Position numbers and translations under genes: made by a program. DNA of 64,000 nucleotides from Candidatus Methanoperedens sp. (GTDB lineage: Archaea > Halobacteriota > Methanosarcinia > Methanosarcinales > Methanoperedenaceae): contig JAHFDG010000018.1 in NCBI GenBank assembly GCA_023249105.1, positions 1-64,000 on the forward strand. Reading direction: 5' to 3'. Below, piece by piece: positions 17,366 through 56,084 of the stretch (positions are counted from its first letter, which is position 1; each line of letters opens with the position of its first letter). A model generated the notes under the pieces. That model worked only from the letters and a program-made list of their open reading frames with translations, searched no databases and had not been told where the DNA came from.

Positions 17366-18055
17366 ATGAAATACCCACCAACCAACCTCATACAGGCTGC
17401 CGGTCTTGCGGATGCATGGGCGCAGGCTGTGAATTTTGTCGTAAAACACGGTATGGAGATAAAGACAGAATACGGTCCTATGTCAAAGGATATATGTTCT
17501 GTCATCGAAATCCGCGAACCGTATGCGGAGCCGATGCTGCATCCCCAGTTCCCTACAAAGGAGCTGCATGTAAAGGAGTATTTGAAGCAGTGGGAGCGGG
17601 GTTATGACTGGAAAAAACAGGGATTTGAGTATAATTACATGGACAGGTTGATAAATTATCCCTCGCGCAACAAAGACGTCGACCAGCTAAAAGCAATAAA
17701 AGAATTGCTGCCGCAGGGCGTCTCGCGCAGGCGGCAGGCAATCACATGGATACCTGAGCGCGACCTTTTCGTGAAGGAAGACCAGCCCTGCTTGCAGAGG
17801 CTATGGGTTCGGGATATTGGCGAGGGCAATGCAGAGATGCATTGCATGTGGCGCTCGCGCGACCTTTTCGCGGCGTGGAACAGCAACATGGTGGGGCTGC
17901 TCACGATGATTAAAAGGGAAGTGCTTGAACCCAATAACCTGAAACTTGTAAAAGTGGTGGATTTCTGTAACTCGATGCATATCTATGAAGCTGACTGGGA
18001 AGCAGCCTCGAAGGTGAAGCCGCTGTCGAAGAGCCCGCAGATGATGAGGTATTAA
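17366..18055 (+). CDS. Archaeal thymidylate synthase-like protein
   Basis: A 229-aa protein of the small archaeal ThyA family. The active-site region reads DQPCLQRLWVR (catalytic Cys near residue 142), followed by MHCMWRSRDLFAAWNSNMVG, which matches the conserved R-S-x-D-x-x-x-x-x-x-x-N dUMP-binding segment. Further C-terminal residues (DFCNSMHIYEADW) fit the N-S-x-H-x-Y motif. It is shorter than bacterial ThyA (about 264) as expected for this branch. The reductant and folate cofactor in archaea may be a modified pterin. It stands alone, convergent with the operon at 18 kb. Confidence 0.85.
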   Translation: MKYPPTNLIQAAGLADAWAQAVNFVVKHGMEIKTEYGPMSKDICSVIEIREPYAEPMLHPQFPTKELHVKEYLKQWERGYDWKKQGFEYNYMDRLINYPSRNKDVDQLKAIKELLPQGVSRRRQAITWIPERDLFVKEDQPCLQRLWVRDIGEGNAEMHCMWRSRDLFAAWNSNMVGLLTMIKREVLEPNNLKLVKVVDFCNSMHIYEADWEAASKVKPLSKSPQMMRY

Positions 18056-18078
18056 TAACTGCGTTCATCTGCGGTTTA

Positions 18079-18708
18079 CTAAGTTTTCATGCTCTCATAG
18101 GTCGCATGTTCTTTCCTGACCACTGGCACGAACTCCCAGCCGCTTTCTTCAATAGTTTTTACAATCGGGTCGCGCACCCTGTTCACATCGAACTTGTATT
18201 CATAGACCTTGCCGAGCGTCCCGTCTTCCTTTATCCCGTACTGCACTTCCCATGATTTCTGGAAAAGAATCCTTCCCCTGAAAAAAGCTTTCTGGAATGC
18301 TGCAACCGGATTGAGGGAGCCGTCTGTCCCGACAAGCCAGCGCACGCTTCCCGTTTCCTCGCAGTAACGCGCAGCTTTTCGGGACTCATCCAGCACGAGA
18401 TAAGCGCGGTAAGTTTTACTCAGCCGCTCTTTGGAAAATACTGCATACCACGTCGCATCCACGATTTTCCATTCCACAAACAAATCGGTTTCTTTGTCAG
18501 TTCTTATCTGGTAAGGCAGCTCAGGCGAGTTCAGCGCAAGGAGTTTTTGTTTAAGCTTCTCTTTGCTCATCGGTAAGGTGGTAAACTTTTTCTTACCTCC
18601 AAGATACTCGAAATAACCGAAAGCATAAATCATTGCTCCAATTCCGGCAAGGGCGCCAAGTATTCCAAACGCCATGCCTATTGCAGCAATTAAAGTTTCA
18701 CTTACCAT
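18079..18708 (-). CDS. Membrane-anchored protein, last gene of the seven-gene operon
   Basis: A 209-aa protein with one N-terminal membrane helix (about residues 6-32) and a cytosolic or external alpha/beta domain of about 170 residues. No motif was recognised. Features include a Trp/Tyr-rich core (LFVEWKIVDATWYAVFSKER) and a region near 145-175 (FFRGRILFQKSWEVQYGIKE). It follows the zinc-ribbon gene by 15 bp in the same direction. The function is unknown. Confidence 0.6.
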   Translation of the reverse strand: MVSETLIAAIGMAFGILGALAGIGAMIYAFGYFEYLGGKKKFTTLPMSKEKLKQKLLALNSPELPYQIRTDKETDLFVEWKIVDATWYAVFSKERLSKTYRAYLVLDESRKAARYCEETGSVRWLVGTDGSLNPVAAFQKAFFRGRILFQKSWEVQYGIKEDGTLGKVYEYKFDVNRVRDPIVKTIEESGWEFVPVVRKEHATYESMKT

Positions 18709-18723
18709 TCCACACCACTTTTT

Positions 18724-18993
18724 TTATTTCAACCTGGCGCCGCAATTGGAACAAAAATCGGAATTTGTCCCGGCGGGAGTGCCGCATTCGGGGCAAAATC
18801 CCTTTCCTGCCGGCGCAGATGGAACGGAAGGTGCAGACCTTTTCCCCAGTGCATATCTTATACCCATTCCGATAGCGAATACGACTACGAAACCTACGAG
18901 TAAATCCGTTAAAGACGAGTCGCCATTCTCCGCACTGGCCGCTCCCACCAGTAAAGTAGTGAAAACCAGCGCCAACAAAAACTTGTTCATCAT
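18724..18993 (-). CDS. Signal/anchor plus zinc-ribbon small protein
   Basis: About 89 aa from the ATG at 18993, which has GAGGAGG just upstream, formed by the last Arg-Arg codons of the preceding gene. A signal peptide or helix (residues 1-20), a second helix (about 29-46) and a C-terminal zinc ribbon (FCPECGTPAGTNSDFCSNCG) follow. Such minimal zinc ribbons occur at the ends of many archaeal membrane proteins and probably mediate contacts. It is part of the 18-25 kb operon. Confidence 0.68.
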   Translation of the reverse strand: MMNKFLLALVFTTLLVGAASAENGDSSLTDLLVGFVVVFAIGMGIRYALGKRSAPSVPSAPAGKGFCPECGTPAGTNSDFCSNCGARLK

Positions 18994-18995
18994 AT

Positions 18996-19604
18996 TTACC
19001 TCCTCAGCGCACTTATCGCATTGTTCACAGTCTCTGCCCACTTTTTCGTATCACGCATGCCCCCGAACTTGTACTTTTGCCCGCCAGCTTGTATTGTCAG
19101 GCTTGCCCATCCGTTTTCCACATTTGTAATCTCGGAAAGGTTAATAGTGAAAAATTCCTTACACTTTTCCACATCCTTCGGGTTCGGGATAAATATTCCG
19201 CCTGGCAATGCTGTCCCGCCCACGCCCTGTAAGGCGCTTGCTTTGAAAATCAGCCTCTGGTTTGTAAGAGTGAGCTTACCGTTAGTGGATGACATGAAAT
19301 TTTTCACGTAAGCTATCGGGAAAAATCCGGTATCTTTGAGCACTGTCTCCCCTGAAGAATCCTGAGCCATTCCCTGCGCTTGCGAAGGAGGCGCGGCATA
19401 CATCGCAGAAGGCTGTGACTGTGAAGGTTGAACAGGCGCCGGTTTGCCAAAATTATATCCGCATGTCGTGCAGAAATTAGCGTCCTGCGCTACTGGATTT
19501 CCACACTCAGGACAGAACTGCGGTGAAATTACAACAAGCGTGCCGCAGCGTGAGCAGAATTTGTCGCTATCCCGAACAGCGGCGCCGCAACTTGAACAGT
19601 TCAT
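18996..19604 (-). CDS. Double zinc-ribbon and GRAM/PH-like domain protein
   Basis: About 202 aa from MNCSSCGA (ATG overlaps the upstream stop by 4 bp). Three CxxC pairs or ribbons (CSSCGAAVRDSDKFCSRCG; FCPECGNPVAQDANFCTTCG) occupy residues 1-55. A Pro/Gln linker follows, and then a GRAM/PH-type beta domain (about 100-195) with the tell-tale GKLTLTNQRLIFKAS, common to membrane-phospholipid-binding or protein-binding GRAM domains. A helix (DTKKWAETVNNAISAL) caps it. This would be a cytosolic adaptor at the membrane. Confidence 0.72.
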   Translation of the reverse strand: MNCSSCGAAVRDSDKFCSRCGTLVVISPQFCPECGNPVAQDANFCTTCGYNFGKPAPVQPSQSQPSAMYAAPPSQAQGMAQDSSGETVLKDTGFFPIAYVKNFMSSTNGKLTLTNQRLIFKASALQGVGGTALPGGIFIPNPKDVEKCKEFFTINLSEITNVENGWASLTIQAGGQKYKFGGMRDTKKWAETVNNAISALRR

Positions 19605-20065
19605 GCGCTCACCTCTATCTCTGGATATTTCTGGCAATTATAGCAGTAATTAGCCTGGTACTCCGGGATATACGTCATTGGCTTGCCGCAGGATGGACAG
19701 AACCTTGTATTAGCTGCTGGCTGCATCTGCGGGGATGCCCGCTGCACAGCGCCTGCCCGTGTGCCTGCTTCCTGCCATCTTTCGCCAATGTAACCGCCTG
19801 CAACTCCCATGAGGAATGATATCACAATCCCAAGACCGCTGATTCCAGGAAAGAGTGACGCTATTGCACTTGCTATTCCCGGCTCTATTATTGTTTTTCC
19901 GGGTGATTTTTTCCCGATTATTACACCGCCGGCGAAGTAGGAGAGAAATATTAGCAGGTATGAAACTGCAAGGGATCCTGTAATAGCACCTATAATCGCA
20001 CCGATATATGCAAGCACTATTATAACAACAGTGCCTATTCCTAACCATCTGAAATCTATCTTCAT
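19601..20065 (-). CDS. Glycine-rich membrane protein with C-terminal zinc ribbon
   Basis: About 154 aa. Three hydrophobic segments rich in Gly and Ala (residues 5-30, 33-52, 70-95; AYIGAIIGAITGSLAVSY) look like close-packed helices. The C-terminus carries a zinc ribbon (FCPSCGKPMTYIPEYQANYC, then YNC). The start ATG overlaps the upstream stop (TAATG form), giving tight coupling with the propeller gene. It could be a small oligomeric membrane component; that is inference. Confidence 0.65.
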   Translation of the reverse strand: MKIDFRWLGIGTVVIIVLAYIGAIIGAITGSLAVSYLLIFLSYFAGGVIIGKKSPGKTIIEPGIASAIASLFPGISGLGIVISFLMGVAGGYIGERWQEAGTRAGAVQRASPQMQPAANTRFCPSCGKPMTYIPEYQANYCYNCQKYPEIEVSA

Positions 20066-21429
20066 TATAACCACTCGCATTTCTTCTTCAGGGACAATAT
20101 TACAACAGAAAGTACAGCTATCGCTACCTCAAATCCTGGCATGTTTTTCTTATCAGGTGTTTGAGAAACAGGTTTTTGGGATTCTGTTTTTTTAGGAAAT
20201 ATTGTAACCGCGGGTTGAACATAACCTGTGCCTCCAGCCTTTATCAGCCAGCCATCAGCTCCGCCCGCTCCATAAGACTCCGTGAATCCGGCCAGGACAT
20301 ATTCACCATTTCCAATCTCCTGTACAGAATAAATTCCGTTGTTTTCAATTCCACCGAACGTCCTGTTCCACTGCTCACTTCCGTTAGCATCGGTACTGAT
20401 AAGCCATGCGTTGCTTTCTCCTGCCCCATATGACCTAGTTGAGCCACCAATTATATATCCGCCATCCTGAGCCTGCTGAACCGAAAATGCAAAGTCGTAA
20501 CCAGCCCCGCCGAATTTCTTTTTCCACTGCAAAGAGCCGTTAGCATCGGTCTTGATAAGCCAGGCATCGTCTCCCGCTGTCCAGCCTGCAACTATATAAC
20601 CGCCATCCCTCGTCTGCTGAACTGATTGTGACTCATCGAATTTATTTTCATTTAATGTCCTGTTCCATTGCTCGCTGCCGTTGGCATCCACTTTTACAAG
20701 CCATGCAATGTCATGATCGGATTGTGTGTAGCCAGCCATGATATATCCGCCATCGCTGGTCTGCCGGACTGATTTAGCTTCACCAAATAGTGTATTACCG
20801 AAAGTCATATTCCACTCCATGGTGCCATTTGCATCAGTCTTGACGAGCCATGCGTTAGCGCTTCCATCTTCCCCGAAAGGTGCGGCAATACCGGACATTA
20901 TGTAACCCCCGTCCCTGGTTTGCCGGACAGAGTTGGCGCCGCGGATACCTATTTCCCCGAACGTCCTGTTCCACTGCTCGCTTCCGCTGGCATCGATCTT
21001 GATTAACCACGCCTTAATAATCGCGCTGTCCATGTTCCCAAAAACCGAGTTTTCAATGTTTCTCTTCTCATGCGTGGTTGTGGCGCCTGCGATTATGAAG
21101 CCACCGTCCGCAGTCTGCTGCGCGCAAAGAGCCTCATCACTGCTATTTCCCCCGAACGTCCTGTTCCATTGCTCGCTGCCGTTGGCATCTGTTTTAATAA
21201 CCCAGGCATCTTTCTTTCCCGCCCCATACGACCAGGTTAAGCCTGCCAATATGAATCCACCATCCTGCGCCTGTGATACAGAGTATATATAATCATGTCC
21301 CTCACCGCCGAATGTCCTGTTCCATCGCTCTACCGGGACAGCAATCGCACTGCTTGCCAGCAATAATGTTGCCAGGGTTATTATTCCAGCCAATTTGGGG
21401 GTATTTCTTAAGCGTTTATTCGATGCCAT
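20065..21429 (-). CDS. Secreted repeat beta-propeller with PGF-CTERM-like tail
   Basis: A 454-aa protein with a signal peptide (residues 12-31) and about eight near-identical repeats of about 50 residues. Each reads roughly EQWNRTFGG...SVQQT.DGGYI.AG.T...DAWLIKTDANGS. Each repeat carries N-glycosylation sites (NRT, NGS). The end (MPGFEVAIAVLSVVILSLKK and a basic tail) is PGF-CTERM-like. Similar repeats occur in many archaeal and bacterial surface proteins. Within the operon it is the anchored outer-surface component. Confidence 0.8.
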   Translation of the reverse strand: MASNKRLRNTPKLAGIITLATLLLASSAIAVPVERWNRTFGGEGHDYIYSVSQAQDGGFILAGLTWSYGAGKKDAWVIKTDANGSEQWNRTFGGNSSDEALCAQQTADGGFIIAGATTTHEKRNIENSVFGNMDSAIIKAWLIKIDASGSEQWNRTFGEIGIRGANSVRQTRDGGYIMSGIAAPFGEDGSANAWLVKTDANGTMEWNMTFGNTLFGEAKSVRQTSDGGYIMAGYTQSDHDIAWLVKVDANGSEQWNRTLNENKFDESQSVQQTRDGGYIVAGWTAGDDAWLIKTDANGSLQWKKKFGGAGYDFAFSVQQAQDGGYIIGGSTRSYGAGESNAWLISTDANGSEQWNRTFGGIENNGIYSVQEIGNGEYVLAGFTESYGAGGADGWLIKAGGTGYVQPAVTIFPKKTESQKPVSQTPDKKNMPGFEVAIAVLSVVILSLKKKCEWL

Positions 21430-21430
21430 T

Positions 21431-22636
21431 TTATATCATCAGTTTAACTCCACACTTCTTGCAGAACTTCTCATTAACAGATGCCGCATTTCCGCATTTG
21501 GGACAGAACCCCGCCTTTGAAGCAAGGCCTGTGCCGCATTTTGCGCAGAATTTTGCCCCGGCAAGATTAGGAGTTCCGCATTTACTGCAGGTAATTCCCT
21601 CAGGCTTAGCAGAAGTTGGTGGTGGGGCGGGCTTTGCGGCAGGTGCAGTTTGCTCAAACGGCTGCGTGGAAATATTGAATAATATTTCATGAACATCTGA
21701 TGTGCCAATGGAATTTATTAAAATCCTGTCGCCATTATCTGAAGACTGCTGAATAAGCAGCAGCGTCCCCAATCCTCTTATTAATCCAAGATAGGTCTTC
21801 TCTATTATATTCCCGCGGTTCACGCTTATATTCAATCCGCAGTAACCGATTACCGGGAACGCCAGATGGGAAAAAGTATTAAGGCTGGAAGATAACGCAT
21901 TTACGCCTTTACCAGATACTATGATGCCATCTTTATTGAGGGCATTTAACCCTTGCGAAACTCCTGATTCATTAAGCTCGACTGGCATTATCATATAGCC
22001 TAACGGCGCATACCATGCCAGGCTAGATTCAGTCCTGGCCTCAAGCAGTATCCTCATGATTTCTTTCTGCGAAAAATCAATCGCAAATTCCTGTCTCCTG
22101 TCAAGCAAAGCCCGAAGCTCTCCTTCACGGCACAAATCAAGGACGGCAAGAAATACCGGCAAGGCAGAAACACCTGCTTCCAGTGACAGGCCCGGAGCTT
22201 CCTTAATTTCAGGAATTGATATTTTACCCCCTATCACGTCTGTTATTTCCTCAGGTGAAACAAAGTATGAAAAATGATTTTCCCCGGTTTTGCTTCTGGT
22301 GAATGAGACCAGGGAATCCGGGCCTGAATCAAATGTCGAGAAAACCGAACTGAAATTCACCTTGTCAGAATCACCCCACAACAACCTGATTTCTATATCA
22401 GGGTTTGCAAGTATGCTAATGGCTTTCTGGCATTCAGGCGTTAAACTATTTGCAGAATCCAGAAGACCAAGATTTAAAAGCCTGCTGGTATTGGATGCAG
22501 GTGGCTGTATGCCTTTAACCTCAAGAAGGGGCGAGGGTTTTTCAATACTGGCGTTTGAAAGATTAATCAGCGCCGATATCTCTCCATCCGATAGAATCAC
22601 TGTCATTGGTTTGGATTTGTTTTGAGTCTCCATCAT
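21431..22636 (-). CDS. Unknown cytosolic protein with tandem zinc ribbons
   Basis: A 401-aa protein. The first 310 residues have no clear family: alpha/beta, Leu-rich, starting LSDGEISALINLSNASIEKP, with a layout (short N-terminal helix, LLNLGLL repeat-like strands) that loosely recalls secretion-chaperone folds. The C-terminus carries two zinc ribbons (CSKCGTPNLAGAKFCAKCG and FCPKCGNAASVNEKFCKKCG). A Pro/Ala linker separates the parts. It overlaps the PEGA gene by 4 bp (ATGA), so it is probably a direct partner. Any chaperone or immunity role is speculation. Confidence 0.6.
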   Translation of the reverse strand: MMETQNKSKPMTVILSDGEISALINLSNASIEKPSPLLEVKGIQPPASNTSRLLNLGLLDSANSLTPECQKAISILANPDIEIRLLWGDSDKVNFSSVFSTFDSGPDSLVSFTRSKTGENHFSYFVSPEEITDVIGGKISIPEIKEAPGLSLEAGVSALPVFLAVLDLCREGELRALLDRRQEFAIDFSQKEIMRILLEARTESSLAWYAPLGYMIMPVELNESGVSQGLNALNKDGIIVSGKGVNALSSSLNTFSHLAFPVIGYCGLNISVNRGNIIEKTYLGLIRGLGTLLLIQQSSDNGDRILINSIGTSDVHEILFNISTQPFEQTAPAAKPAPPPTSAKPEGITCSKCGTPNLAGAKFCAKCGTGLASKAGFCPKCGNAASVNEKFCKKCGVKLMI

Positions 22637-25365
22637 TTTCCTCCCATAATTCTCTTAAAATCATTTAACAATTGCTCTTTACTGCCGCCATAGCCGGCTT
22701 GTTTCATTGCCTCATCCACCGGAATTCCTTTTTTCTTGATGAGGTCAGCTACTCTGGCAGCATCCGGTAATTTATAACTCACGCCCCCGGTCTCATGGAA
22801 GTTCTTGACATAATCCATGCTGTACTGGCCGGCTTTCCTTGATACTTCCTTTGACGTCTCTTTAATCAGTTCTTCAGTGGAACTGCCACTTGCAATCTTA
22901 TCATTGAAGAATTTCTGGAAATTCTTTGTGCCGCTTGCAACCTCGTCCTTTGTCATATTCAGTATGGAATCGCTCGTCTGGGAAATTTCCCTGCTTACCA
23001 CAATTTCTCCATCCTTCATTGTTCTTATCATGAGATCGCTTCCAGTGTTCTGGTTGTAGTTCTCCAGCCATTTCAGGGCGCCCCCTTCATACGCTCCTTT
23101 GCCGCTTGTACCCACGTAAACATTGGCGTCTAACGCTTCGGCTGATGTGCCTGATTTTTTCAGGCTTTCCTCGAAAGATTGTTTATACATCTGGTCGTAT
23201 TTCGGGTCACCGAACTTCGGCGTAATGTCGTAATCGCTCTTTAGGGGATTATAGCCCGGATTTCCCGGTTGGGCATGCGTTCCTGTCTGCTTTATGAAGA
23301 AAGTTTTATCTTCGACAGGAATACCGTCATTTTTCATCTGGTCAATAACTTTCTTTATTGCGTCGTCCCTTGCGCCCTGGTATACCTTTTGTTTTGTCAG
23401 GGCGATAGCATCCTTTGTTTTGGCAGGAACGAGTTCGGAATTTTGTTTAAGGGTTTTACTCAATCCCTTGTCATTGATTATTTTGAGGGTGTCTTTTTCG
23501 GCTGGCCCTAATTGTGTAGTGGGAGTTGGCGTTTTCCCTCCAAGCTTGACGACCTCTGTTTGTTTCATGAATATATCGCGGGACATGACGTCCTTAACAG
23601 AATTTGTCATGCTGGACAGCTTGGAAGTCAGCGAGGGGAATGTGTCGGAGAACAACGATGCGGCTTTACTGATGTAGGGTGCTGTGAATTTAGAAATTGC
23701 AGGAAACGCTATCCTCCCGATAAATTCACCCGTTGCGAGCTGAAATATCCCATTTTTAAATCCATCCACAACTGCTTGTTTTGTGGAAGCTCCAGCCATT
23801 ATGCTGTCTCCCATGGATGTTACGGACGATACTGGAAGCAGGGCCATTTCAGAATAACCGAGGCTCAGATAAGCTGAACCCAATCTGATAAACAGGTTAT
23901 TGGATGCCTCTTTAACCGTATCGTAAGCGGCGTTTGTATAAGTATAATCCGGAATTTCAGCAGTCATTTTTTCCCTTATGATTCTTTGCTTCAAAATGGA
24001 GTCCAGCATCTTGAGCTTCTGTTCGTTCACCGTTCCCTTGTCGTCCACCACTTTGTTCCATACCCTGTCAACAAATTCCTTGTTACTGGGGTCGCCTGAA
24101 ACCGCTGATCTGATCTTGTTGGCATGGTCCACAAGAATCTCGTTCTTTTCCGCTGGCGTCATTTGTATCCGCTGAGGTTCCTTTATTCTTTGCGGCTTCT
24201 TCGGAGGTGGCTGGGGATTATCCTGGATGCGCGTGGATTTGGGGGGCGGCGGTTTAGGAGTAAGGGGTGAGCTTCTTGATGGTGATGGTGGTCTTGGCAA
24301 CGTGTTTCCAGGCGGCGCGGGCGGTCGCGGCAGCGTTCCGCCTGCACCAGCGCCGGCACCCGTCACTCCTCCGATGCCTTTCAGGGCGCTGATAATCTTG
24401 GTAATTACAGTTACCACCACTCCGGCTCCTGTAACGCCTATAACGACATTAGCAATGTCATCGCCTGCTGAACTTGGCTTGAGGTTAGCGGATACCTTTT
24501 TCGTAGCGCCAGCTACGACCGTAGCGGTCTCGGAATAATCCTCGTAGCCGTCTGCCTTGATCGTAACATCATAAGTTCCCGGGGGAACGTCGGGTATTTT
24601 TAACGGGGTCACTCCCATGTAGTTACCATCAATGTACAGGTCAGCCCCATCCGGGGCAGAGTTTACAGAGATTACTCCGAAAGTTTGCTGGCCTGAGGGA
24701 TTGTATGTTATGGTTATAGTATCGGTTTTTTGCGCTTTGCCAGAAACGATTCCGGCTTTTAATGTAAATGTGCCTGCTGTTTGCTTTGAAAGGTTAACAC
24801 TAAATGAAACGCTGCCGCTCGCAGCGGATGGGTTTTTCGACTCTGTGTAAACATTCTGTGAACCCTTGTCCACGTTGAGATAAACCTGCGGGTTTGCAGC
24901 AGGTGAAGAATAGCTGACCGTTACCGTAAATTTCGATGTTGTAATGGTTTGGCCTTTGGCAGGCGATGTGATTTTGACAGAAAGCTGGGTAGCAGGTGGA
25001 ACGGGCGTGGTAATGCCGGGCGCTGGAGGTTCAGGGGTGGTAATGCCTGGGGTTATTGGCGCAGGAGTTGTTGTGCCGGGGGATTCACATGATGAGACAA
25101 CACCATTTGACAACAGGTTTTGACAATATGCATCTTTATAATATTTATAGTCCTGAAGGGCTTTTGTCACCTCTGCATTATTGCCATTCTGGACTGCGAG
25201 GATGTACCGTTTGTAACTGGCATCCATAAAATCCTTTAATCCAAGTGTACAGTCACTGCTCTTGGGGTCCTGCTCGCATGCGCGAGGTAAGGACTGTGCA
25301 TATACATTCTGTGCGGTATAAAACAAAAACAATAGAAGAAGTAGTAATAGGATTCTATTTCTCAT
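22633..25365 (-). CDS. Large secreted PEGA protein with uncharacterised C-terminal domain
   Basis: A 910-aa protein, first gene of a seven-gene operon. It has a signal peptide (1-24), a short helical domain (25-92), a Thr/Pro linker (95-125), an Ig-like domain (128-222) and a PEGA domain (about 228-298: NSAPDGADLYIDGNYMGVTP, then GTYDVTIKADGYED). A hydrophobic Gly-rich stretch (303-345), a Pro-rich region and a long helical region follow. The C-terminal part (about 690-910) contains SDYDITPKFGDPKYDQMYKQ and LDANVYVGTSGKGAYEGG. The S-D-x-D and later D-x-N pattern is reminiscent of nucleotidyltransferase-like toxin domains. The layout resembles secreted polymorphic toxins, but no homology search was possible. 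Confidence 0.6.
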   Translation of the reverse strand: MRNRILLLLLLLFLFYTAQNVYAQSLPRACEQDPKSSDCTLGLKDFMDASYKRYILAVQNGNNAEVTKALQDYKYYKDAYCQNLLSNGVVSSCESPGTTTPAPITPGITTPEPPAPGITTPVPPATQLSVKITSPAKGQTITTSKFTVTVSYSSPAANPQVYLNVDKGSQNVYTESKNPSAASGSVSFSVNLSKQTAGTFTLKAGIVSGKAQKTDTITITYNPSGQQTFGVISVNSAPDGADLYIDGNYMGVTPLKIPDVPPGTYDVTIKADGYEDYSETATVVAGATKKVSANLKPSSAGDDIANVVIGVTGAGVVVTVITKIISALKGIGGVTGAGAGAGGTLPRPPAPPGNTLPRPPSPSRSSPLTPKPPPPKSTRIQDNPQPPPKKPQRIKEPQRIQMTPAEKNEILVDHANKIRSAVSGDPSNKEFVDRVWNKVVDDKGTVNEQKLKMLDSILKQRIIREKMTAEIPDYTYTNAAYDTVKEASNNLFIRLGSAYLSLGYSEMALLPVSSVTSMGDSIMAGASTKQAVVDGFKNGIFQLATGEFIGRIAFPAISKFTAPYISKAASLFSDTFPSLTSKLSSMTNSVKDVMSRDIFMKQTEVVKLGGKTPTPTTQLGPAEKDTLKIINDKGLSKTLKQNSELVPAKTKDAIALTKQKVYQGARDDAIKKVIDQMKNDGIPVEDKTFFIKQTGTHAQPGNPGYNPLKSDYDITPKFGDPKYDQMYKQSFEESLKKSGTSAEALDANVYVGTSGKGAYEGGALKWLENYNQNTGSDLMIRTMKDGEIVVSREISQTSDSILNMTKDEVASGTKNFQKFFNDKIASGSSTEELIKETSKEVSRKAGQYSMDYVKNFHETGGVSYKLPDAARVADLIKKKGIPVDEAMKQAGYGGSKEQLLNDFKRIMGGK

Positions 25366-25507
25366 GATTCAAGTCCTTCTGAAAGAAAATGGAAACGATT
25401 AGTAACATCATAAAAGAAAGCATCGAAAAGGGCAACGGTTTTTTTCATTATTTCCATATCCATCTTTAATCATGATAATACTTACTTGAATATAAATGTT
25501 CTTTATA

Positions 25508-26167
25508 TTAAGTCCGCCCATATTCTTCCTTGAATTTCGAAATCTGGTCGCCGTTCCCAATAACAGCCAATGTCATTCCCTCCTTTATCACAATAGAAGG
25601 GTCAATATCGGTAGTAGTCTTGCCATCCTCTTCAATCCCGATAATGGTGCACCCTATCCTTGAACGGATGCAGGCGTCAGAGATTTTCTCACCTGCAAGA
25701 GGCGAATCGCGTGTCACATGATATCTTTCTATTTCCAGCCCTTCGAACATCATTATGGTCTCTTCTATCTCATGCCCCAGGATAATGCGTGCAAGCATCT
25801 GCGCAGCCACGATTGAAAGAGAAGCTACATAATCAGCCCCGGCCCGGTATATCTTGTCAATGGACTTTGTTGCATTTGCTCTTGCAATGATTATACAGTG
25901 CGGATTCAAAGTCCTTGCTATGAGAGAAGTGAAAATGATATCAGTATCGTTATTCAGGACAATGATAACCGTAGTTGCATTCTTGAGGTCAGCGCGCTTC
26001 AGGACTTCCTCGTCGGTTGCATCACCGACCACGTATTTAAAGTTTTTATCTTTGAATTTTGCCTCGTTTTTATCAACTACGACAAAACTCACAAATGCGT
26101 TTTCCAAAACCCTGGCTATGCTAATGCCCACATCGCCGTACCCGATAAGAATAAAATGTTTTTTCAT
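25508..26167 (-). CDS. TrkA-like potassium transport regulator (RCK domain)
   Basis: A 219-aa protein. An N-terminal Rossmann RCK_N domain with IGYGDVGISIARVLENAF (GxGxxG) binds NAD(H) or a nucleotide. The C-terminal RCK_C domain (about 145-215) ends ILAVIGNGDQISKFKEE. It has no membrane segment. It lies 7 bp downstream of a K+ channel with its own RCK domains, so it probably regulates that channel or a Trk/Ktr transporter elsewhere. Conductance control in methanogens typically follows Ca2+ or nucleotides; the ligand here is unknown. Confidence 0.85.
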   Translation of the reverse strand: MKKHFILIGYGDVGISIARVLENAFVSFVVVDKNEAKFKDKNFKYVVGDATDEEVLKRADLKNATTVIIVLNNDTDIIFTSLIARTLNPHCIIIARANATKSIDKIYRAGADYVASLSIVAAQMLARIILGHEIEETIMMFEGLEIERYHVTRDSPLAGEKISDACIRSRIGCTIIGIEEDGKTTTDIDPSIVIKEGMTLAVIGNGDQISKFKEEYGRT

Positions 26168-27373: not shown

Positions 27374-28921
27374 TTAAGTGATTTCTTTTAACTTCCTTAA
27401 TCCTTCATTTATCTTGATCTGCGAATCCTCGATTATTTTAATAAGCTCTTCAGGTTTGGGTATGACTTTTTCTTTGACATTCGGATTAACTGCTTTTATG
27501 TCGTAATTCTTACGTTTTATAGTTTCTATATCAATAAACCAGCTTTTTTCACTGGTTTTATCTTCTTCTTTTGTCGAGTTATGCCTTTGCAGGAAGTCAT
27601 CGAATTTATTAAGCGTCAGAGGGTCTTTTTTTAGAATCTTGATATCGGACATATCATAGTACCAGACTTTTTGCGTTGGCTTCTCTTTTGTGAAAAACAA
27701 CAGGTTTGTCTTGACTCCGGCGCCGGCATTTGCGAAGGCGTTCTGTGGCAGGCTGAGGATGCACCATAAATTGCATTCTTCCAGCAGCTTTTTCTTTGTC
27801 TGCACGAAAGCGAGTTCATTTGTCCTGAAGAGTACGCCTTCATCGATTACCATGGCGCATGTTCCGCCTTCTTTAAGATGGTCTATGATATGCTGGATGA
27901 ATAGAATCTGGGTGTTGCCGGTCTTGAAAACAAAGTTCGTCTTGGCGTCTTCCCCTTCTTTCCCGCCAAAAGGAGGATTTGTAAATATATAGTCAAATTT
28001 ACTCTGGGCGCCTTCGAATAGCTCCATATAGGTATCCCTGCCGCTCAATGTGTTTTTCAATCCGACATGAGGATAATCTATCCCGTGCAGGACTAAATTT
28101 GCGAGAGCAATCGGGAATGCGGTGTCGCTGTTGTCCAGTCCCCAGAACGCGTCATGCTTTAAATGTTCTATTTCGGTTGCGTTCAGTTCCTTGCCTGACA
28201 GTTCAGGATTAGTAAAATAAGTGTAACACTCAGCCAGGAAGCCGCCTGTTCCGCAGCAGGGGTCGTAGATAGTTACGAGCGCGCCGTCTTTTAAAATTTG
28301 TGGCTTTATTGCCCTTATCATCGCCCTGATAACTTCCCTTGGAGTAAAGAACTGCCCACCGTCATTGTTTTTCTCGCCCATCTTTAACAGCAAGCCTTCG
28401 TATATTTGCGAGAGCGGGAACTGGTGTGTTTCGTCGATGTTTTCTGATGTGAGGTGGTCGATTTTATCCAGCACGTCAAGCAGGTTCCTCTCGCTTGCGA
28501 GCTTTGTCTGGGTGATGTTCCTGAAGATTTGCGAGATAATTTTTTGTTTTATGTTTGCTGATGGTTTGTCCTGGAATGATTTCAGGTAGGGAATTAACTC
28601 GTTATTTACAAAATCCAGGAAATCTCCCATTTTGCCGTTTTGCAGTTCTACCCTTTTCTTGCCGTAGGTATTGCCCCAGTCTCTCCATCTGTATGGTTCT
28701 TTTAAAGAGGCGGTGAAAGACTTCCCAACAGCCTGGCACTTTAGCTCCTCTTCTTGCTCTTTTTCGTCAAGTATTCGCAGGAACATCATCCATGTAAGTT
28801 CGGGGATGTACTCCAGGGCGCCTTTTGTCCTGTCGCGGCGCATGATGTCGCAGACTGATTTGATGTATGCGTTCATGCTGGATTGGTCTGTTACTGTTCT
28901 TCCGTTATTGTTTTTTGCCAT
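27374..28921 (-). CDS. hsdM: Type I restriction-modification methyltransferase subunit HsdM
   Basis: About 515 aa. An N-terminal helical HsdM_N domain (MNAYIKSVCDIMRRDR...) is followed by an N6-adenine methyltransferase domain. This has the SAM motif IYDPCCGTGGFLAECY (about residue 240) and catalytic FTNPPFGGKEG. The start at 28921 is preferred (AAGGCGG lies upstream on the coding strand); longer upstream ATGs lie inside or next to a repeat. It is separated from hsdS by about 390 bp containing tandem repeats. With HsdS it methylates the host recognition site. Confidence 0.92.
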   Translation of the reverse strand: MAKNNNGRTVTDQSSMNAYIKSVCDIMRRDRTKGALEYIPELTWMMFLRILDEKEQEEELKCQAVGKSFTASLKEPYRWRDWGNTYGKKRVELQNGKMGDFLDFVNNELIPYLKSFQDKPSANIKQKIISQIFRNITQTKLASERNLLDVLDKIDHLTSENIDETHQFPLSQIYEGLLLKMGEKNNDGGQFFTPREVIRAMIRAIKPQILKDGALVTIYDPCCGTGGFLAECYTYFTNPELSGKELNATEIEHLKHDAFWGLDNSDTAFPIALANLVLHGIDYPHVGLKNTLSGRDTYMELFEGAQSKFDYIFTNPPFGGKEGEDAKTNFVFKTGNTQILFIQHIIDHLKEGGTCAMVIDEGVLFRTNELAFVQTKKKLLEECNLWCILSLPQNAFANAGAGVKTNLLFFTKEKPTQKVWYYDMSDIKILKKDPLTLNKFDDFLQRHNSTKEEDKTSEKSWFIDIETIKRKNYDIKAVNPNVKEKVIPKPEELIKIIEDSQIKINEGLRKLKEIT

Positions 28922-28951
28922 GATTTTGTACTTTTCCGCCTGTTGCATTTT

Positions 28952-29250
28952 ATTAACAACGAACTGATACGAACTTGTACGAACTCGATACAAATTTAAC
29001 GGTGAGTTCGTATTGAGTTCATTGGGAGTTCGTCGTTAGATATTTTCACTTCTCATTTTGGTTGCTTTGGGTGAGTATTAGGATTAACAACGAACTAATA
29101 CGAACTCGTACGAACTCGATACAAATTTAACGGTGAGTTCGTATTGAGTTCGTTGGGAGTTCGTTGTTAAATATTTTCATTTCTCATTTTGGGTTGCTTT
29201 GGGTGAGTATTAGAATTAACAACGAACTAATACGAACTCGTACAAACTCT
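28952..29250 (-). repeat. Tandem 131-132-bp repeat with long inverted repeats (2.3 copies)
   Basis: Copies start at 28952, 29083 and 29215 (third partial). Each full copy has ACGAACT words, then a central ACAAATTTAACGG, then AGTTCGT words on the other strand, so each forms an imperfect inverted repeat of about 85 bp. A roughly 45-bp spacer (ATATTTTCA..TTTGGGTGAGTATTAG) follows. In the left arm the words are 10 bp apart, in the right arm 11 bp. The block lies exactly between hsdS and hsdM. Confidence 0.88.
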
Positions 29251-49821: not shown

Positions 49822-50611
49822 AACCTTAATTAAAATCGGAATTGAAATCCGGGATATAATCGGCTCATTCATCAGGGATAACGCGGATTACGGGGAAATG
49901 ATTGCCCGGCGTCCGAAGGATATCACGCGTAAAATGGATATGGCTGCTGAAACGGCGCTTGATAAAGCACTTTTAACGCGCGGCCTCTCGGCAAGGATAA
50001 TATCAGAGGAGCTGGGAGACCGGATTGTGGGTGAACATCCCGATTTCATGCTGGTTTTTGATCCCATTGACGGTTCTACCAATGCAACGTGCGGTATTCC
50101 ATTTTTCTGCACTTCGCTTGCTTATTCTGAAAAAATTGATATGGCCACGTTTGGCGACATCAGTATGGCGGTCATCTGTGATATGACGGGAAATACATAC
50201 TGTGCCGAAAAGGAAAAGGGCGCTTTTTTAAATGGTAAACTAATTGGCGCAAAATTGCGCGGCGCCATGCCCAAACCTGTAATATCCGTGTATTCATATG
50301 GTGTTCCCGACGTCCCGAAGGGATTGATAGAACTTGAAAAATCAATAATTGTCAGGGCGCTTGGCAGTATTGCGCTTGATATGTGTTTTGTGGCTGACGG
50401 GACACTTGACGGGATTATTGATACGCGGGGACTTGTGAGCGGCTATGATATCATGGCATCTGCTTTGATATTGAAAGAGGCAGGGGGAAGCCTTACCGAT
50501 ATTGAAGGTAAAAAGATATCAAGTGATGTGCAGGCTTCAGGTTTGTCTATAATCGGGACGAAGGACAAAGTTCTTCATGACAGAATAGTGAAGGTATTGA
50601 ATCAGGATTAG
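49811..50611 (+). CDS. Inositol monophosphatase/FBPase-family phosphatase
   Basis: About 266 aa from MEIETLIKIGIEIRDIIGSF. The metal motif DPIDGSTNA (about residue 82) and a second acid site (GYDIMASALILKEAGGSL) are present. It overlaps the upstream gene by 11 bp. In archaea this family has dual inositol-phosphate and fructose-1,6-bisphosphate activity; PAP phosphatase is another option given the APS-kinase-like neighbour. No N-terminal signal. Confidence 0.85.
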   Translation: MEIETLIKIGIEIRDIIGSFIRDNADYGEMIARRPKDITRKMDMAAETALDKALLTRGLSARIISEELGDRIVGEHPDFMLVFDPIDGSTNATCGIPFFCTSLAYSEKIDMATFGDISMAVICDMTGNTYCAEKEKGAFLNGKLIGAKLRGAMPKPVISVYSYGVPDVPKGLIELEKSIIVRALGSIALDMCFVADGTLDGIIDTRGLVSGYDIMASALILKEAGGSLTDIEGKKISSDVQASGLSIIGTKDKVLHDRIVKVLNQD

Positions 50612-50625
50612 TATGAGTATTGAAT

Positions 50626-52485
50626 TCACAATATCACACGATACATCCATTCTATAATGTTTTGCATTAGAGGCAGTATGGTAAAGTTTTGCGAAGGTGA
50701 CATGTAAGTCATGTTCATAACCCAATAATAAAAAAGCAGGAATGAAGATGCCAGAGAAAGGGATAAACCTATAAAAAATACAAGAATTTTGTCCAATATG
50801 GCTGCTGGTATTTTATCCGGGGCTAAATGATTCGTTGATACCAATGCTATTAATGAGATAGAAGTAATCAATGCTGCATAATAATAAATATCAATAAAGG
50901 GGACCGGAAATTTTTCAATGAAATAAATTATGCCCAGTACTGATATAATGCTAAACCATATGAATATTGTTTGTAAATTGTTTTCAACTAAATCTTTTAT
51001 TTTATCTATCCTGAGTGCAAAATAAAGCAGAAGAATATACAGTATCAGTAAATATCTGTATTCAAGCATGTCAGGAGTATCTATTATTATTGAAATCAAA
51101 TAGTTTTTATGGAGTGGAACAAATAATAGAATATACAGCCCGAAAAATTTGTCCATTGGATTTAACTTGATTTTTCGCTTTATCCAGGCTATCATGAATC
51201 CGAGCGCAATTATTAAAAATGGACTAATTAAGAAAATACCGAATGTGTTTTGTATTTTTAGAAATGTAGAACCCAGCAGGATATTGAGCCAATTGCTTTT
51301 TATTTCTACTCCCCCTTTAAACCCAAATTCCTTCATGAGTTTTACTTGTTCTGAATTTGTTGGTTCCTGGGTAAGGATGATGACATCCTTTCCTGGCTGC
51401 ATATTAGCCATTTTACCGCTTTGAGGGGTATTTTCCATGACCGAGAGGGGATTATCCAGAGTTAAATAATTAAAAGTAAAAAATGGGATTAAGGATACAA
51501 TAATTATTATTGAAACCGGAAGGACATACTTAATACCGCGTTTAAAAATGACTATGTCTGTTACCAGAAGCGCTATCAATAACACCATACCATCTAAAAT
51601 GCGCGTCCAGACGCAAAGCCCCGCTGCAAGATACGCTAAATAAATATATTTGTCATTGTTTTTCTCTAATTTTTTATTTTATCGGAATACCCCGCAGCTC
51701 TGCTGCGGTTGGGTACAGCCTCCCAGAAATGCAACAACAAAACGAGGAACCAGGAGATGCCCCACAGCTCTGCTGTGGGGAGCTTCACTAAAAAAATAGA
51801 ATGCAAGCAAGGTCAAGAAAAGTGAAAGAGTATGGTGTTTCAAAGTGATGGCATAAAAAGAAATCGGTGTTGCAAATATCAGAAATAGAGAAGCAAAGAA
51901 CGCAATCTTATCGCTAAAAAATTTCCTGAATAACAGGTATACGAAAACAACCAACAAGGATGTTATGAGAATATTAGTAAATTCAATAGATAGCCATTCA
52001 CCCCACTTTGGAAAATTGATGGGTTTAAAGTAATACATATTGATAGCTATCAATACGAAATAAGAAATCACCCCAAAAAGTTCCGGATATTTTATTTTAC
52101 GTGTTCCGGCAATAAGATATGCAATAAAGCCTCCGCTCAATGCCCATAACTGCAACAGGAAAAGATGACCGCCGTATAACAAATCCATTGCTCTTAAAAA
52201 ATAATATACAGGTAAGGATAAAATAAGCAGCGAGTAGCTGAATTTTCCATAGATATGATCATTTAATACAAGATAAATCCCGTTTGAGTTTATTTTAAAT
52301 GTTTCCAGGGAAATAGAACCATGTATCAGGTTATAGAATTGGTCCAGGATTACTGCCTCATCGTCAATATACATTCGTGTGCCTGCGAAACTTGTCAGGA
52401 TAAAAAAGGAAATTAAAAATATAAGTACACTATTTTTGTTTGTTATAATTAACTCCCAAATCCTCTCGCATGTTTTTTTAATCAT
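50626..52485 (-). pseudogene. Third GT39-like membrane glycosyltransferase, split by a palindromic element
   Basis: Two ORFs, 268 aa (51679-52485) and 320 aa (50626-51588), together match the length and sequence order of the two intact paralogs next door. The first piece ends at LTLLAFYFF, then runs through the element to a TAA stop. Beyond it the family sequence resumes (KKLEKNNDKYIYLAYLAAGL, then CVWTRILDG). The insertion appears to be 111 nt, so the frame is kept and one stop codon ends the product. The gene is probably inactive unless the halves work apart. Its ATG overlaps the stop of the upstream paralog. Confidence 0.85.
51682..51789. mobile_element. Non-autonomous palindrome-ended element (IS200/IS605-like)
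   Basis: About 108 nt with no ORF of its own. Near the left end is the hairpin CCGCAGC-TCT-GCTGCGG (51692-51708), near the right end CCCCACAGC-TCT-GCTGTGGGG (51760-51780); both share the TCT loop. No target duplication is visible, as expected for IS200/IS605 peel-and-paste transposition. The limits come from comparing the interrupted gene with its paralogs. Transposase family is inference. Confidence 0.7.
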
Positions 52486-54269
52486 ATAGATAAACTACTC
52501 ATAATACTACCATACATCCAACCCAATATGTTCTGCAAAACCGGCAAAATAGTGAAATTTTGTGAAGGTGAAGTGTATGTCATGCTCACAACCCAGTAAT
52601 AAAAAAGGAGGAACATAGAAGCGAGGGCAAGGGATAATGCGATAAGAATGATGGTCATTGAATTCAATAAAGCAGGCGCTGGTTTTTTATTCATTAAAAT
52701 GTTTGTTGATACTATCACTATTAATGAGAGTGAAGTGAACAGTGCTGCATAGTAATAGATATTCATGAACGGCAAAGGAAATTCTTCAACAAAATAAACT
52801 ATGCTTAGCAATAATATTATGCCATATAATATGACGATTGTTCTTAGTTTGCTTTCGATTAAATCCTTTACTTTATCAATCCTGAGCGCAAAATAAAGCA
52901 GGATTATGTACATAATAAGCAGATACCTGTATTCGATAACGTCAGGTGTGTCTGTTATGGTCATAGATATATAGTTCAAATTAGAATATATAAATAATAT
53001 AGTATATAGTCCTAAAAATTTGTCCATCGGGCTTAACTTAATTCTCTTTTTTATCCTGTCTATAATAAAAGCAATCGCAATTATTAAAAAAGGACTAACT
53101 AAAAAAATACCAAATGCGTTTTGTATTTTTAAAAATGTTATATTCAATAAAATATTCCACCAATCAGATTTAATCCCTGAATACTGGTTATATGAATATC
53201 CAAGTTTTCCCAATAGAATATCGGGTTTTAAATCTGTTGGATCGTAATTTAGTATTATCGCATCCTTTCCTGGATTCATTGTAAGTGGTTCATCACTTGA
53301 TGGGAAGGTCGATTGTGCAGTTTCCATAATAGAAACCGGATTACCCAGAATTAAATAATTAAAACTAAAGAAAGGAATAAGCGATATTGATATTATTATA
53401 AAGATATATATTATATGTTTAATAGAGCGCCTGTGTAATAGAATATCTGCAATAAGAAGTGATGTTAGAAGTACTGCCCCTTCCAAAACGCGCGTCCATA
53501 CACAGAGACCTGCTAATAAGAACGCAAAGTACATGAATTTATTTTCCTTTTTTTCCTCGTATCTATAAAAAAAGTAAAAAGCGAGTACGGTTAATAACAA
53601 GGTAAGGACATGATGTTTTAAGGACACTGCATAAAAAGAAATCGGGGTTGCGAAGATAACAAAAAAAGAGGCGAACATGGCGATTTTATTGCCAAAGAAA
53701 TTATTGAATAACAGGTAAACGAATAAAACCAGGAAAGAAGATATCAGGATATTGGTAAATTCAATAGATAGCAGTTCTCCCCACATTGGAAAATAAATGG
53801 GTTTAAAATAATACATATTGACTGCTATCAATATGAAATAAGAAAACACCCCAAAAAGTTCAGCTTGCTTTGATTTTCGGTTCCTGGCAATAAGATATGC
53901 AGCAATCCCGCCGCTCATAGCCCACAATTGCACTAAAAATAGATGCGCGCCGTATAATAAATCTATTGTTTTTAGGAAATAATAAACGGGCACGGAAAAT
54001 ATTGGCAACGAAAAGCTGAATTTACTGTAGATATGGTCATCTGATATAAAATAAACTCCCCCCTCCATAACTTTAAATTTCCCCAATTCCAATGATAGAG
54101 AGCCGTGAATCAGGTTATAGAACTGGTTCAATATTACAGCTTCATCGGATATGAATAACCGCGTTCCTGCAAAACTGAGGAATATGAACATCGAGGAGAA
54201 AAATAAAAATATAGGAATCTTATTTGATTCAAGCATTCCAGTGGCCTTTTTATAGAGTATTCCCATCAT
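52482..54269 (-). CDS. GT39-like membrane glycosyltransferase, paralog 2
   Basis: A 595-aa protein with about 12-13 hydrophobic helices. The first external loop carries LFISDEAVILNQFYNLIHGS; the acidic residues (D-E) are the expected catalytic position in PMT/GT39-type enzymes. A soluble loop (about 320-355) separates two bundles. It overlaps the split third paralog by 4 bp. Substrate unknown; surface glycoprotein assembly is likely. Confidence 0.78.
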   Translation of the reverse strand: MMGILYKKATGMLESNKIPIFLFFSSMFIFLSFAGTRLFISDEAVILNQFYNLIHGSLSLELGKFKVMEGGVYFISDDHIYSKFSFSLPIFSVPVYYFLKTIDLLYGAHLFLVQLWAMSGGIAAYLIARNRKSKQAELFGVFSYFILIAVNMYYFKPIYFPMWGELLSIEFTNILISSFLVLFVYLLFNNFFGNKIAMFASFFVIFATPISFYAVSLKHHVLTLLLTVLAFYFFYRYEEKKENKFMYFAFLLAGLCVWTRVLEGAVLLTSLLIADILLHRRSIKHIIYIFIIISISLIPFFSFNYLILGNPVSIMETAQSTFPSSDEPLTMNPGKDAIILNYDPTDLKPDILLGKLGYSYNQYSGIKSDWWNILLNITFLKIQNAFGIFLVSPFLIIAIAFIIDRIKKRIKLSPMDKFLGLYTILFIYSNLNYISMTITDTPDVIEYRYLLIMYIILLYFALRIDKVKDLIESKLRTIVILYGIILLLSIVYFVEEFPLPFMNIYYYAALFTSLSLIVIVSTNILMNKKPAPALLNSMTIILIALSLALASMFLLFYYWVVSMTYTSPSQNFTILPVLQNILGWMYGSIMSSLSI

Positions 54270-54326
54270 ATTATTAACTAATTGTTATAAGTCAATCCTA
54301 TGGCAATAAAAGTTACTATATAATAC

Positions 54327-56084
54327 TCATACTACCATGTACATCCAATCCAATATGTTCTGTAAAACTGGCAGAATGGTGAAATTCTGGGATGGTGAAA
54401 TGAATGTCATGCTGACAATCCAGTAATAAAAAAGAAGGAATATCGAAGCTTCTGCTATAGCAAGTGCGATTGTGAAGATTAATATTTTATCTATGATATC
54501 AATAACTCTTTTATTTTTTACCAAAAGATTTGTTGATATTAAAATAAAAAGGGATATGGAAGTAGCAAGTGCTGTATAATAGTAAATGTTCATAAAAGGT
54601 AAAGGAAATTCCTTAATTAAAAGAATTAATATTATTATTAATATTATTATATATAATTTGCTTAAGGCTTTTAGATTACTTTCCAATAACGTCCTCACTG
54701 TGTCTATCCTGAGAACAAAATAGAGCAGTACAATATAAACGATTAACAGATATCTATATTCGAGCACTTTAGGGGTATCTGTTACTATTGTTAGAATATA
54801 ATTCTTATACGAAAAAATAAATAATAAGATATATAGCCCAAAAAACTTGTCCATGACATTTAACTTAATTTTTCCTTTTATCCTATCAATAATAAACACG
54901 ATTGCGATTATTAGAAAAGGACTGATTATAAAAATACCGGATGTATTATTCAATTTTGAAAATGTTATATCTAATAAAATATCCTGCCAATAATATTTTA
55001 TTTCATCATTCTCACCATATCCAAGTTCTCTCATCAAAGCTACAGACTTATAATTTTCATCGGTATATATAATTGCATTTTGCCCAGGTTGCATCGTTCC
55101 CGATTCAGTGGCAATATCCGTGTTTTCCATAATCGAGACCGGATTTCCAAGAATTAAATAGTTTAAACTAAAGAAGGGCAGCAGGGATCCGGTAATTATC
55201 ATTGAAATAAAGATGATATATTTGATATCACGCTTGAAAATAATAATGTCCATTATCAAAAGTGTTGATAAAAGCACCACGCCATCCAGGACGCGTGTCC
55301 ATACGCAAAGTCCTGCAAGCATATAAGCGAAGTACATGAATTTATTTTCTTTTTTCTCTATATACTTATAAAAAAAGTAAAAAGCGAGTACGGTTAATAA
55401 TAAGGTAAGAACATGGTGTTTTAAGGACACTGCATAAAAAGAAATAGGGGTTGCGAAGATAACAAAAAAAGAGGCGAACATGGCAATCTTATCGCCAAAG
55501 AAATTCCTGAATAACAGGTAAACGATCAGAACCAGGAAAGAAGATATCAGGATATTGGTAAATTCGATAGATAGCAGTTCTCCCCACATTGGAAAATTGA
55601 TGGGTTTAAATAATAGTATATTCGCTCCTATCATAATAAAATATGATATTGCCCCAAAAAGTTCAGCGTGTTTTAAGCTGCTGTTTTTTGCAATTAGATA
55701 AACAACAATCCCCCCGCACAAAGCCCATAATTGCAATAAAAAAAGATGCGCGCCATATAAAAATTCTATGGATCCAAGGATATAATAGAATGGCAAAGAT
55801 AATATAAGCAGTGAATAGCTGAATTTTCCATAGATATGACCCTCAAGAAATAAATAAACCCCTTCTAAAACCTTTATTTTCCCTGTCTCTATTGATAGCG
55901 AACCGTGAATCAGGTTATAGAACTGGTTCAATATTACAGCTTCATCGGATAGGAATAACCGGGTTCCCGCAAAACTGAGGAATATGAACATCGAGGAGAT
56001 AAATACAAATAAGGGAATCTTATTTGATTCGAATAATTTAATGGTTTTTCTATATGATTTCATGAGAACTATTGTTTGAATCAA
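54327..56084 (-). CDS. GT39-like membrane glycosyltransferase, paralog 1
   Basis: A 585-aa protein (an alternative start lies 7 codons in, at MKSYRKTIKLFE). It shows the same architecture as the two downstream paralogs: LFLSDEAVILNQFYNLIHGS in loop one, SFFVIFATPISFYAVSLKHH mid-protein and SFISPSQNFTILPVLQNILD-like near the end. It is the first of three tandem copies on the reverse strand and gives a reference for the missing residues of the split copy. Confidence 0.78.
   Translation of the reverse strand: MIQTIVLMKSYRKTIKLFESNKIPLFVFISSMFIFLSFAGTRLFLSDEAVILNQFYNLIHGSLSIETGKIKVLEGVYLFLEGHIYGKFSYSLLILSLPFYYILGSIEFLYGAHLFLLQLWALCGGIVVYLIAKNSSLKHAELFGAISYFIMIGANILLFKPINFPMWGELLSIEFTNILISSFLVLIVYLLFRNFFGDKIAMFASFFVIFATPISFYAVSLKHHVLTLLLTVLAFYFFYKYIEKKENKFMYFAYMLAGLCVWTRVLDGVVLLSTLLIMDIIIFKRDIKYIIFISMIITGSLLPFFSLNYLILGNPVSIMENTDIATESGTMQPGQNAIIYTDENYKSVALMRELGYGENDEIKYYWQDILLDITFSKLNNTSGIFIISPFLIIAIVFIIDRIKGKIKLNVMDKFFGLYILLFIFSYKNYILTIVTDTPKVLEYRYLLIVYIVLLYFVLRIDTVRTLLESNLKALSKLYIIILIIILILLIKEFPLPFMNIYYYTALATSISLFILISTNLLVKNKRVIDIIDKILIFTIALAIAEASIFLLFYYWIVSMTFISPSQNFTILPVLQNILDWMYMVV

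What the first reader, a model, noticed from the sequence alone, without database searches (positions are those of the whole stretch)
18079..25365. Seven-gene operon of secreted PEGA protein, propeller and four zinc-ribbon proteins
Seen: all seven genes run on the reverse strand with overlaps (ATGA or TAATG) or gaps of 1-15 bp. Order: 910-aa secreted PEGA protein, 401-aa double-ribbon protein, PGF-CTERM-like propeller, Gly-rich membrane protein with ribbon, GRAM-domain protein with ribbons, small signal-plus-ribbon protein, membrane-anchored protein. The layout (large exported effector, cytosolic partner overlapping its gene, surface-anchored propeller, small membrane proteins with matching ribbons) suggests a dedicated export or surface assembly machine. 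Zinc ribbons on four components could be the docking code. This reading is inference; no known secretion ATPase is in the operon.
Basis: partly seen in the sequence, partly recalled or inferred. Interest (0 to 1): 0.72.

Follow-up and report, generated by a model that had tools for sequence, protein, structure and literature searches.

The report
Archaeal membrane protein with EspG-like partner
The first two genes of this archaeal operon are a previously undescribed matched pair, a membrane protein with an exchangeable inner half and a cytosolic partner that distantly resembles the mycobacterial chaperone EspG, while the rest of the operon is looser cargo and there is no sign of an export machine.

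Summary
The seven genes are real, co-directional and tightly packed. They sit as one 7.4-kb insertion between convergent thymidylate synthase and TrkA genes that abut in eight relatives of the same genus. They are not one conserved seven-gene machine. The conserved unit is the first two genes, p1 (910 aa) and p2 (401 aa). With iterated profiles I found the same pair, always p1 then p2 on one strand, in eight further archaeal genomes of five other families, two of them with tandem pairs. p1 is not simply 'secreted': signal peptide, PEGA ectodomain, one TM segment, then about 580 residues predicted cytosolic. p1 N- and C-halves are shuffled between loci, and p2 divergence follows the C-half (rho 0.75, p 0.0002). 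p2 shows remote similarity to EspG: its profile's best PDB hit is EspG1, and its score against an EspG alignment is nearly twice the best of 100 shuffles. Most likely p2 is the dedicated cytosolic chaperone or partner of p1's C-half. Ribbon proteins follow p2 in 5 of 10 other loci, but ribbons are missing from some p2s, and the propeller and last gene are independent. Function is unproven.

The parts
22633..25365 (-). p1, 910 aa: signal peptide 5-23, Cys/charged region, Ig/CopC-like 129-209, PEGA 230-298, TM 307-325, Pro-rich basic linker, about 520-aa C-part predicted cytosolic
   Evidence: ORF; Pfam; hydropathy and charge; C-part without relatives in 394 phylum genomes, plasmids, phages, viral contigs
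21431..22636 (-). p2, 401 aa: EspG-like domain (about 1-335) plus C-terminal double zinc ribbon
   Evidence: Family found in nine genomes by profile; EspG similarity; ribbons
20065..21429 (-). p3, 454 aa: signal peptide, propeller repeats, C-terminal PGF motif plus TM; independent family, not part of the conserved core
19601..20080 (-). p4, 159 aa: Gly-rich TM protein with C-terminal ribbon; positional counterpart of the TM+ribbon gene behind p2 in G347
   Evidence: homology of the TM part not shown
18996..19604 (-). p5, 202 aa from ATG (213 aa from TTG at 19637): two zinc ribbons plus GRAM-like domain
   Evidence: only in own genome within genus
18724..18993 (-). p6, 89 aa from ATG (105 aa from GTG at 19041): signal/TM segments plus zinc ribbon
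18079..18708 (-). p7, 209 aa membrane-anchored protein; passenger, its 80% relative stands alone in G040
25488..25497 (-). possible archaeal TATA element (ATTTATATTC) about 122 bp upstream of the p1 ATG
   Evidence: read by eye; no test made
18056..25507 (.). inserted block between convergent thymidylate synthase (17366-18055) and TrkA (25508-26167) genes
   Evidence: the two flank genes abut in G064, G022, G044, G094, G032, G088, G007, G040; no boundary repeats

Best explanation
The functional core is a two-gene module. p1 is a membrane-anchored protein with an exchangeable extracytoplasmic or multi-TM N-half and an exchangeable, largely helical cytosolic C-half. p2 is a cytosolic protein distantly related to the EspG chaperones of actinobacterial type VII secretion, translated right after p1 from the same message, that binds the cognate C-half of p1, as EspG binds its PPE client, and keeps it soluble, held back or correctly placed. 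Zinc ribbons on p2 and on small downstream membrane proteins (p4-p6) probably bring accessory partners. The whole block was gained in this lineage as an insertion between two housekeeping genes. Shown: gene order and linkage, mosaic p1, co-divergence of p2 with the p1 C-half, EspG-like profile similarity, insertion. Inferred: topology, physical binding, chaperone role, role of ribbons.
For: p1-p2 adjacency on one strand at every p2 locus: 12 loci counting the window, gaps -4 to 46 bp apart from G058, where an assembly gap intervenes. Mosaic p1: G549a, G549b and G571b share the N-half at 76-82% identity but not the C-half, while G571b and G248 share the C-half (40%) with weakly related N-halves. 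p2 bit scores follow C-half bit scores: Mantel rho 0.75, p 0.0002, 11 loci; among 9 loci with both halves rho 0.61, p 0.0034, against 0.32, p 0.066 for the N-half. EspG: p2 and G347 p2 hit PF14011 in the same region (0.018-0.025 and 0.003-0.005); the best of 177,635 PDB sequences for the p2 profile is EspG1 (E 0.35); hhalign score 40.4 (probability 60) with four plasmid EspGs, against a maximum of 22.1 in 100 column shuffles; single EspGs rank 1, 2, 3 and 5 of 63. EspG recognises a domain of its cognate client and sets specificity (PMC5311947).
Against: EspG similarity is below every curated threshold, covers about 70 residues, and only 2 of 9 members hit PF14011. The difference between the C-half and N-half correlations is not significant by itself (p 0.11), and the loci are not all independent (several from one genus). 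Window p1's C-half has no detectable relative, so the client domain of this locus is not shown to be homologous to the others. AlphaFold without an alignment was uninformative (pLDDT 32 and 41). TM orientation is hydropathy and charge only.
Confidence: 0.47

Rival explanations
1. Archaeal polymorphic-toxin-like system: p1 is a surface protein with an exchangeable C-terminal toxin and p2 is the cognate immunity protein made by the next gene.
For: Same N-part with different C-parts, tandem pairs in G549 and G571, co-varying downstream partner, patchy presence; the general layout of such systems is described in PMC3482391 (abstract).
Against: No C-part matches any toxin domain in Pfam, NCBIfam, PADLOC or PHROGs. 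The partner is always one protein family with an EspG-like signal, not a set of unrelated families. The C-half is predicted to stay in the producing cell's cytosol behind TM segments.
Confidence: 0.2
2. Transmembrane signalling receptor: PEGA/Ig ectodomain senses or binds the surface, cytosolic C-half is the output domain and p2 with its ribbons is the adaptor that passes the signal on.
For: Predicted N-out/C-in topology in window p1 and the signal-plus-ectodomain relative G571c, with changing ectodomains (PEGA, SprB-like); cytosolic partner co-diverges with the C-half; p5 has GRAM-like domain plus ribbons.
Against: No known output or kinase domain; Pro/Gly-rich linkers and helical C-parts look structural; several p1 have almost no ectodomain.
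Confidence: 0.18
3. One reading: all seven genes build a dedicated export or surface assembly machine, with ribbons as docking code.
For: Tight operon with exported, membrane and cytosolic parts; ribbon proteins recur behind p2.
Against: Only p1-p2 and ribbon-bearing small proteins recur; p3 and p7 are found apart; no ATPase or channel in any locus; some p2 lack ribbons.
Confidence: 0.08
4. p2 is unrelated to EspG and the pair is an envelope structural complex of unknown kind; the EspG signal is chance.
For: Sub-threshold Pfam and PDB E-values; in a 394-genome PF14011 scan the window hit (14.7 bits) lay among noise hits up to 20.8 bits.
Against: Column-shuffle and ranking controls, and two members hitting the same profile segment independently.
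Confidence: 0.25

Closest known systems
EspG (PF14011), cytosolic chaperone of PE/PPE proteins in mycobacterial type VII secretion
   Same: About 300-aa cytosolic domain with a matching segment (L..LGI.D..G.L.P....A...LA.P); gene lies next to that of a large client with helical domains; partner specificity follows the client's domain.
   Different: Archaeal; below the Pfam cut-off; client is a TM-anchored protein, not PE/PPE; C-terminal zinc ribbons; no ESX genes linked.
Polymorphic toxin systems (PMC3482391)
   Same: Constant N-part with exchangeable C-part, downstream cognate gene, tandem copies.
   Different: No toxin domain found, one partner family throughout, C-part predicted cytosolic.
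VARTIG modules of Thermococcales (PMC8416519)
   Same: Archaeal island; large Ig-domain protein at the 5' end with recombining C-terminus, followed by small membrane proteins.
   Different: VARTIG's variable part is a C-terminal Ig domain of arCOG07710; no zinc ribbons are mentioned there and no EspG-like partner is described.

Membership tests
EspG family (PF14011) | Score over the curated gathering threshold | tested here: not met
   p2 14.6-15.1 bits, G347 p2 16.9 bits, cut-off 27
EspG family (PF14011) | Profile similarity above controls | tested here: met
   hhalign score 40.4 against at most 22.1 for 100 shuffles; EspGs rank 1, 2, 3, 5 of 63; best PDB hit EspG1
EspG family (PF14011) | Encoded with PE/PPE, WXG100 and ESX genes | tested here: not met
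   The four EspGs fetched have PPE/WXG100 neighbours; p2 loci have p1 and ribbon genes and no such match by Pfam in the proteins scanned
EspG family (PF14011) | EspG three-dimensional fold | tested here: inconclusive
Type VII secretion system | EccC-type ATPase and WXG100 proteins in the genome | not tested
Polymorphic toxin system | Constant N-part with variable C-part | tested here: met
   for loci other than the window
Polymorphic toxin system | Recognisable C-terminal toxin domain | tested here: not met
   Pfam, NCBIfam, PADLOC and PHROG scans of p1; Pfam/PADLOC/PHROG scans of relatives
Polymorphic toxin system | Partner neutralises the C-part | not testable with these tools
   needs expression assay
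VARTIG | large Ig protein (arCOG07710) with hypervariable C-terminal Ig domain | tested here: not met
   Ig-like and PEGA domains lie in the N-half of p1, C-half has no Ig match

The most novel reading that the evidence does not exclude
EspG belongs to an older and wider family of cytosolic partners that also exists in archaea without type VII secretion, where each member escorts or holds the exchangeable inner half of a mosaic membrane protein, forming a new kind of modular surface, recognition or conflict system.
Probability: 0.3. Interest if true: 0.8.

Novelty: new variant of a known kind. Interest (0 to 1): 0.58.

Why it matters
It gives a defined pair (p1-p2) in archaea of the methanogen lineages, matched by no Pfam family over its cut-off apart from PEGA and the zinc ribbons, with a concrete testable partnership. 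If p2 is a true EspG relative, it would show that the EspG-type chaperone exists outside type VII secretion, and would offer a simple system for how such chaperones read their clients. The mosaic p1 with co-diverging partner is a pattern known from conflict and recognition systems, which are poorly known in archaea.

Tried and rejected
Single-sequence searches with p1 C-part and p2 gave nothing in 150 order genomes, plasmids, viral contigs or PDB; p1 C-part also gave only a chance nitrogenase-like hit in 394 phylum genomes. The p2 family was reached only through weak PF14011 hits followed by phmmer and profiles. A nucleotidyltransferase reading of p1 (GTHA...KSDYD) was considered: its only support is a marginal alignment with G347 p1 (7 of 500 shuffles reach it), so it is not claimed. 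Internal two-fold repeat of p2: not supported (704 of 1000 shuffles). AlphaFold of p2 and p1 C-part alone: useless, so no fold search was run. C-half domain of relatives (A5): no significant PDB, Pfam, PHROG or viral match; weak hits to a stretch of large clostridial toxins (E about 0.3-0.7) and to enterobacterial adhesins (E 0.8) treated as chance. Shared C-domain HMM does not find window p1. Boundary repeats of the insertion: none. Terminator and promoter scans: at chance.

Full report
OBSERVATION. All seven ORFs are present on the minus strand with overlaps or short gaps. The starts of p5 and p6 are probably internal ATGs. p1 carries a second hydrophobic segment (307-325, mean hydropathy 2.21) after PEGA with an acidic N-side and a basic Pro-rich C-side, so by the positive-inside rule (general knowledge) its roughly 580-residue C-part should be in the cytosol.

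THE BLOCK IS AN INSERTION. The flanking thymidylate synthase and TrkA genes are convergent neighbours at most about 40 bp apart in eight congeners (G064, G022, G044, G094, G032, G088, G007, G040). Here 7.4 kb lie between them. There are no boundary repeats and no integrase in the block. p4-p6 occur in none of the other 30 genomes of the genus, and p2 in no other genus genome among those searched. p3 has relatives in 23 of 31 congeners, and p7 has one 80% relative standing alone beside serA and guaA.

FINDING THE CORE. Direct searches with p2 or the p1 C-part found nothing. p2 showed a sub-threshold EspG match, so the phylum was scanned with PF14011 at a loose cut-off. Most hits were noise, but one ORF in G347 is a clear p2 relative (phmmer 1e-12; tblastn 7e-26 over 390 residues), with two C-terminal ribbons and a 1034-aa p1-like gene directly upstream. 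Profiles built from these found G397, then G549 (two), G571 (two, and a third, more diverged p2 seen by profile beside the first), G558 and G248, then G058, G626 and a remnant in G001. With the window these make six families. At all the intact loci the gene directly upstream of p2, on the same strand, is a p1-like membrane protein. The family is sparse: 3 of 394 phylum genomes, 5 of 199 in the order of G397, 4 of 186 in the window's order.

p1 IS A MOSAIC. p1-like proteins have either a signal peptide, ectodomain and one TM (window, G347, G571c) or a multi-TM N-part (others), then a Pro/Gly-rich linker and a C-part without TM. N-parts of G549a, G549b and G571b are 76-82% identical while their C-parts are of different types. 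The C-parts of G571b and G248 are 40% identical although their N-parts are only weakly related. G571c has an unrelated ectodomain N-part but a C-part like G549b and G626. The C-part of the window p1 is of its own type.

p2 FOLLOWS THE C-PART. Pairwise p2 scores correlate with C-part scores (11 loci rho 0.75, permutation p 0.0002; 9 loci with both parts rho 0.61, p 0.0034) and less with N-part scores (rho 0.32, p 0.066). The difference between the two is not significant by itself (p 0.11). The clearest single case is G549a against G571b: N-parts 77% identical, C-parts with no match, p2s 18% identical with no BLAST match. This is what direct contact between p2 and the C-part would give.

EspG SIMILARITY. 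p2 and G347 p2 independently match the same part of PF14011, under the cut-off. The nine-member p2 profile finds EspG1 as best of 177,635 PDB sequences, E 0.35. Against four EspGs from environmental actinobacterial plasmids, annotated and lying among PPE and WXG100 genes, hhalign gives probability 60 and score 40.4, while 100 column shuffles reach at most 22.1 and the reversed alignment 13.1; single EspGs rank 1, 2, 3 and 5 among 63 proteins, all aligning at the same place. I take remote homology as likely (about 0.65) but unproven; it covers about 70 residues. EspG binds the hydrophobic tip of its PPE client, keeps it soluble and sets its route (PMC5311947).

RIBBONS. p2 carries 0 to 3 ribbons (none in G248 and G058), so the ribbon is accessory. 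A ribbon-bearing gene directly follows p2 in 5 of 10 other loci, against 7 of 82 other genes (P about 8e-4). In G347 it is a TM+ribbon protein (like p4 in layout), in G626 a ribbon protein with an unnamed C-terminal domain, in G549 and G571 a double ribbon + TM protein, in G558 ribbon + TM + TPR. So the ribbon-bearing company of p2 is a real feature, while the propeller and p7 are not.

MECHANISM. The reading that fits best is a membrane-anchored modular protein whose cytosolic half is met, right after synthesis, by a dedicated chaperone-like partner from the next gene. What the C-half does is unknown. Toxin-immunity and receptor-adaptor readings remain open.

LIMITS. No confident structure could be made, because both prediction jobs ran before relatives were known. 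Topology is by hydropathy and charge. Several relatives come from one genus, so the correlation test overstates independence.

Noticed in passing
L086 7889-15003 and L087 1-6054: Two genomes of one genus carry tandem p1-p2 pairs, both beside a site-2 protease/Thg1-like/ileS neighbourhood also found in G397; N-halves very similar, C-halves and p2s different.
   Followed up: yes
L098 9811-10104: In G001 a C-terminal p2 remnant very similar to G058 p2 stands next to an ABC-type transporter permease: a decayed copy.
   Followed up: partly
L010 9236-9895: Stand-alone p7 relative (80%) between serA and a guaA-type amidotransferase gene in G040.
   Followed up: partly
window 27374-28993: Type I restriction-modification methylase (hsdM-like) close to the insertion, after two TrkA/potassium channel genes.
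   Followed up: no
window 50001-56000: GC falls to 0.32-0.38 against 0.39-0.50 in the rest of the window; possible foreign DNA.
   Followed up: no
L074 6975-8675: Two ribbon-bearing genes (143 and 176 aa) on the opposite strand behind the G347 p1-p2 locus, and two copies of a 70-aa ORF.
   Followed up: no
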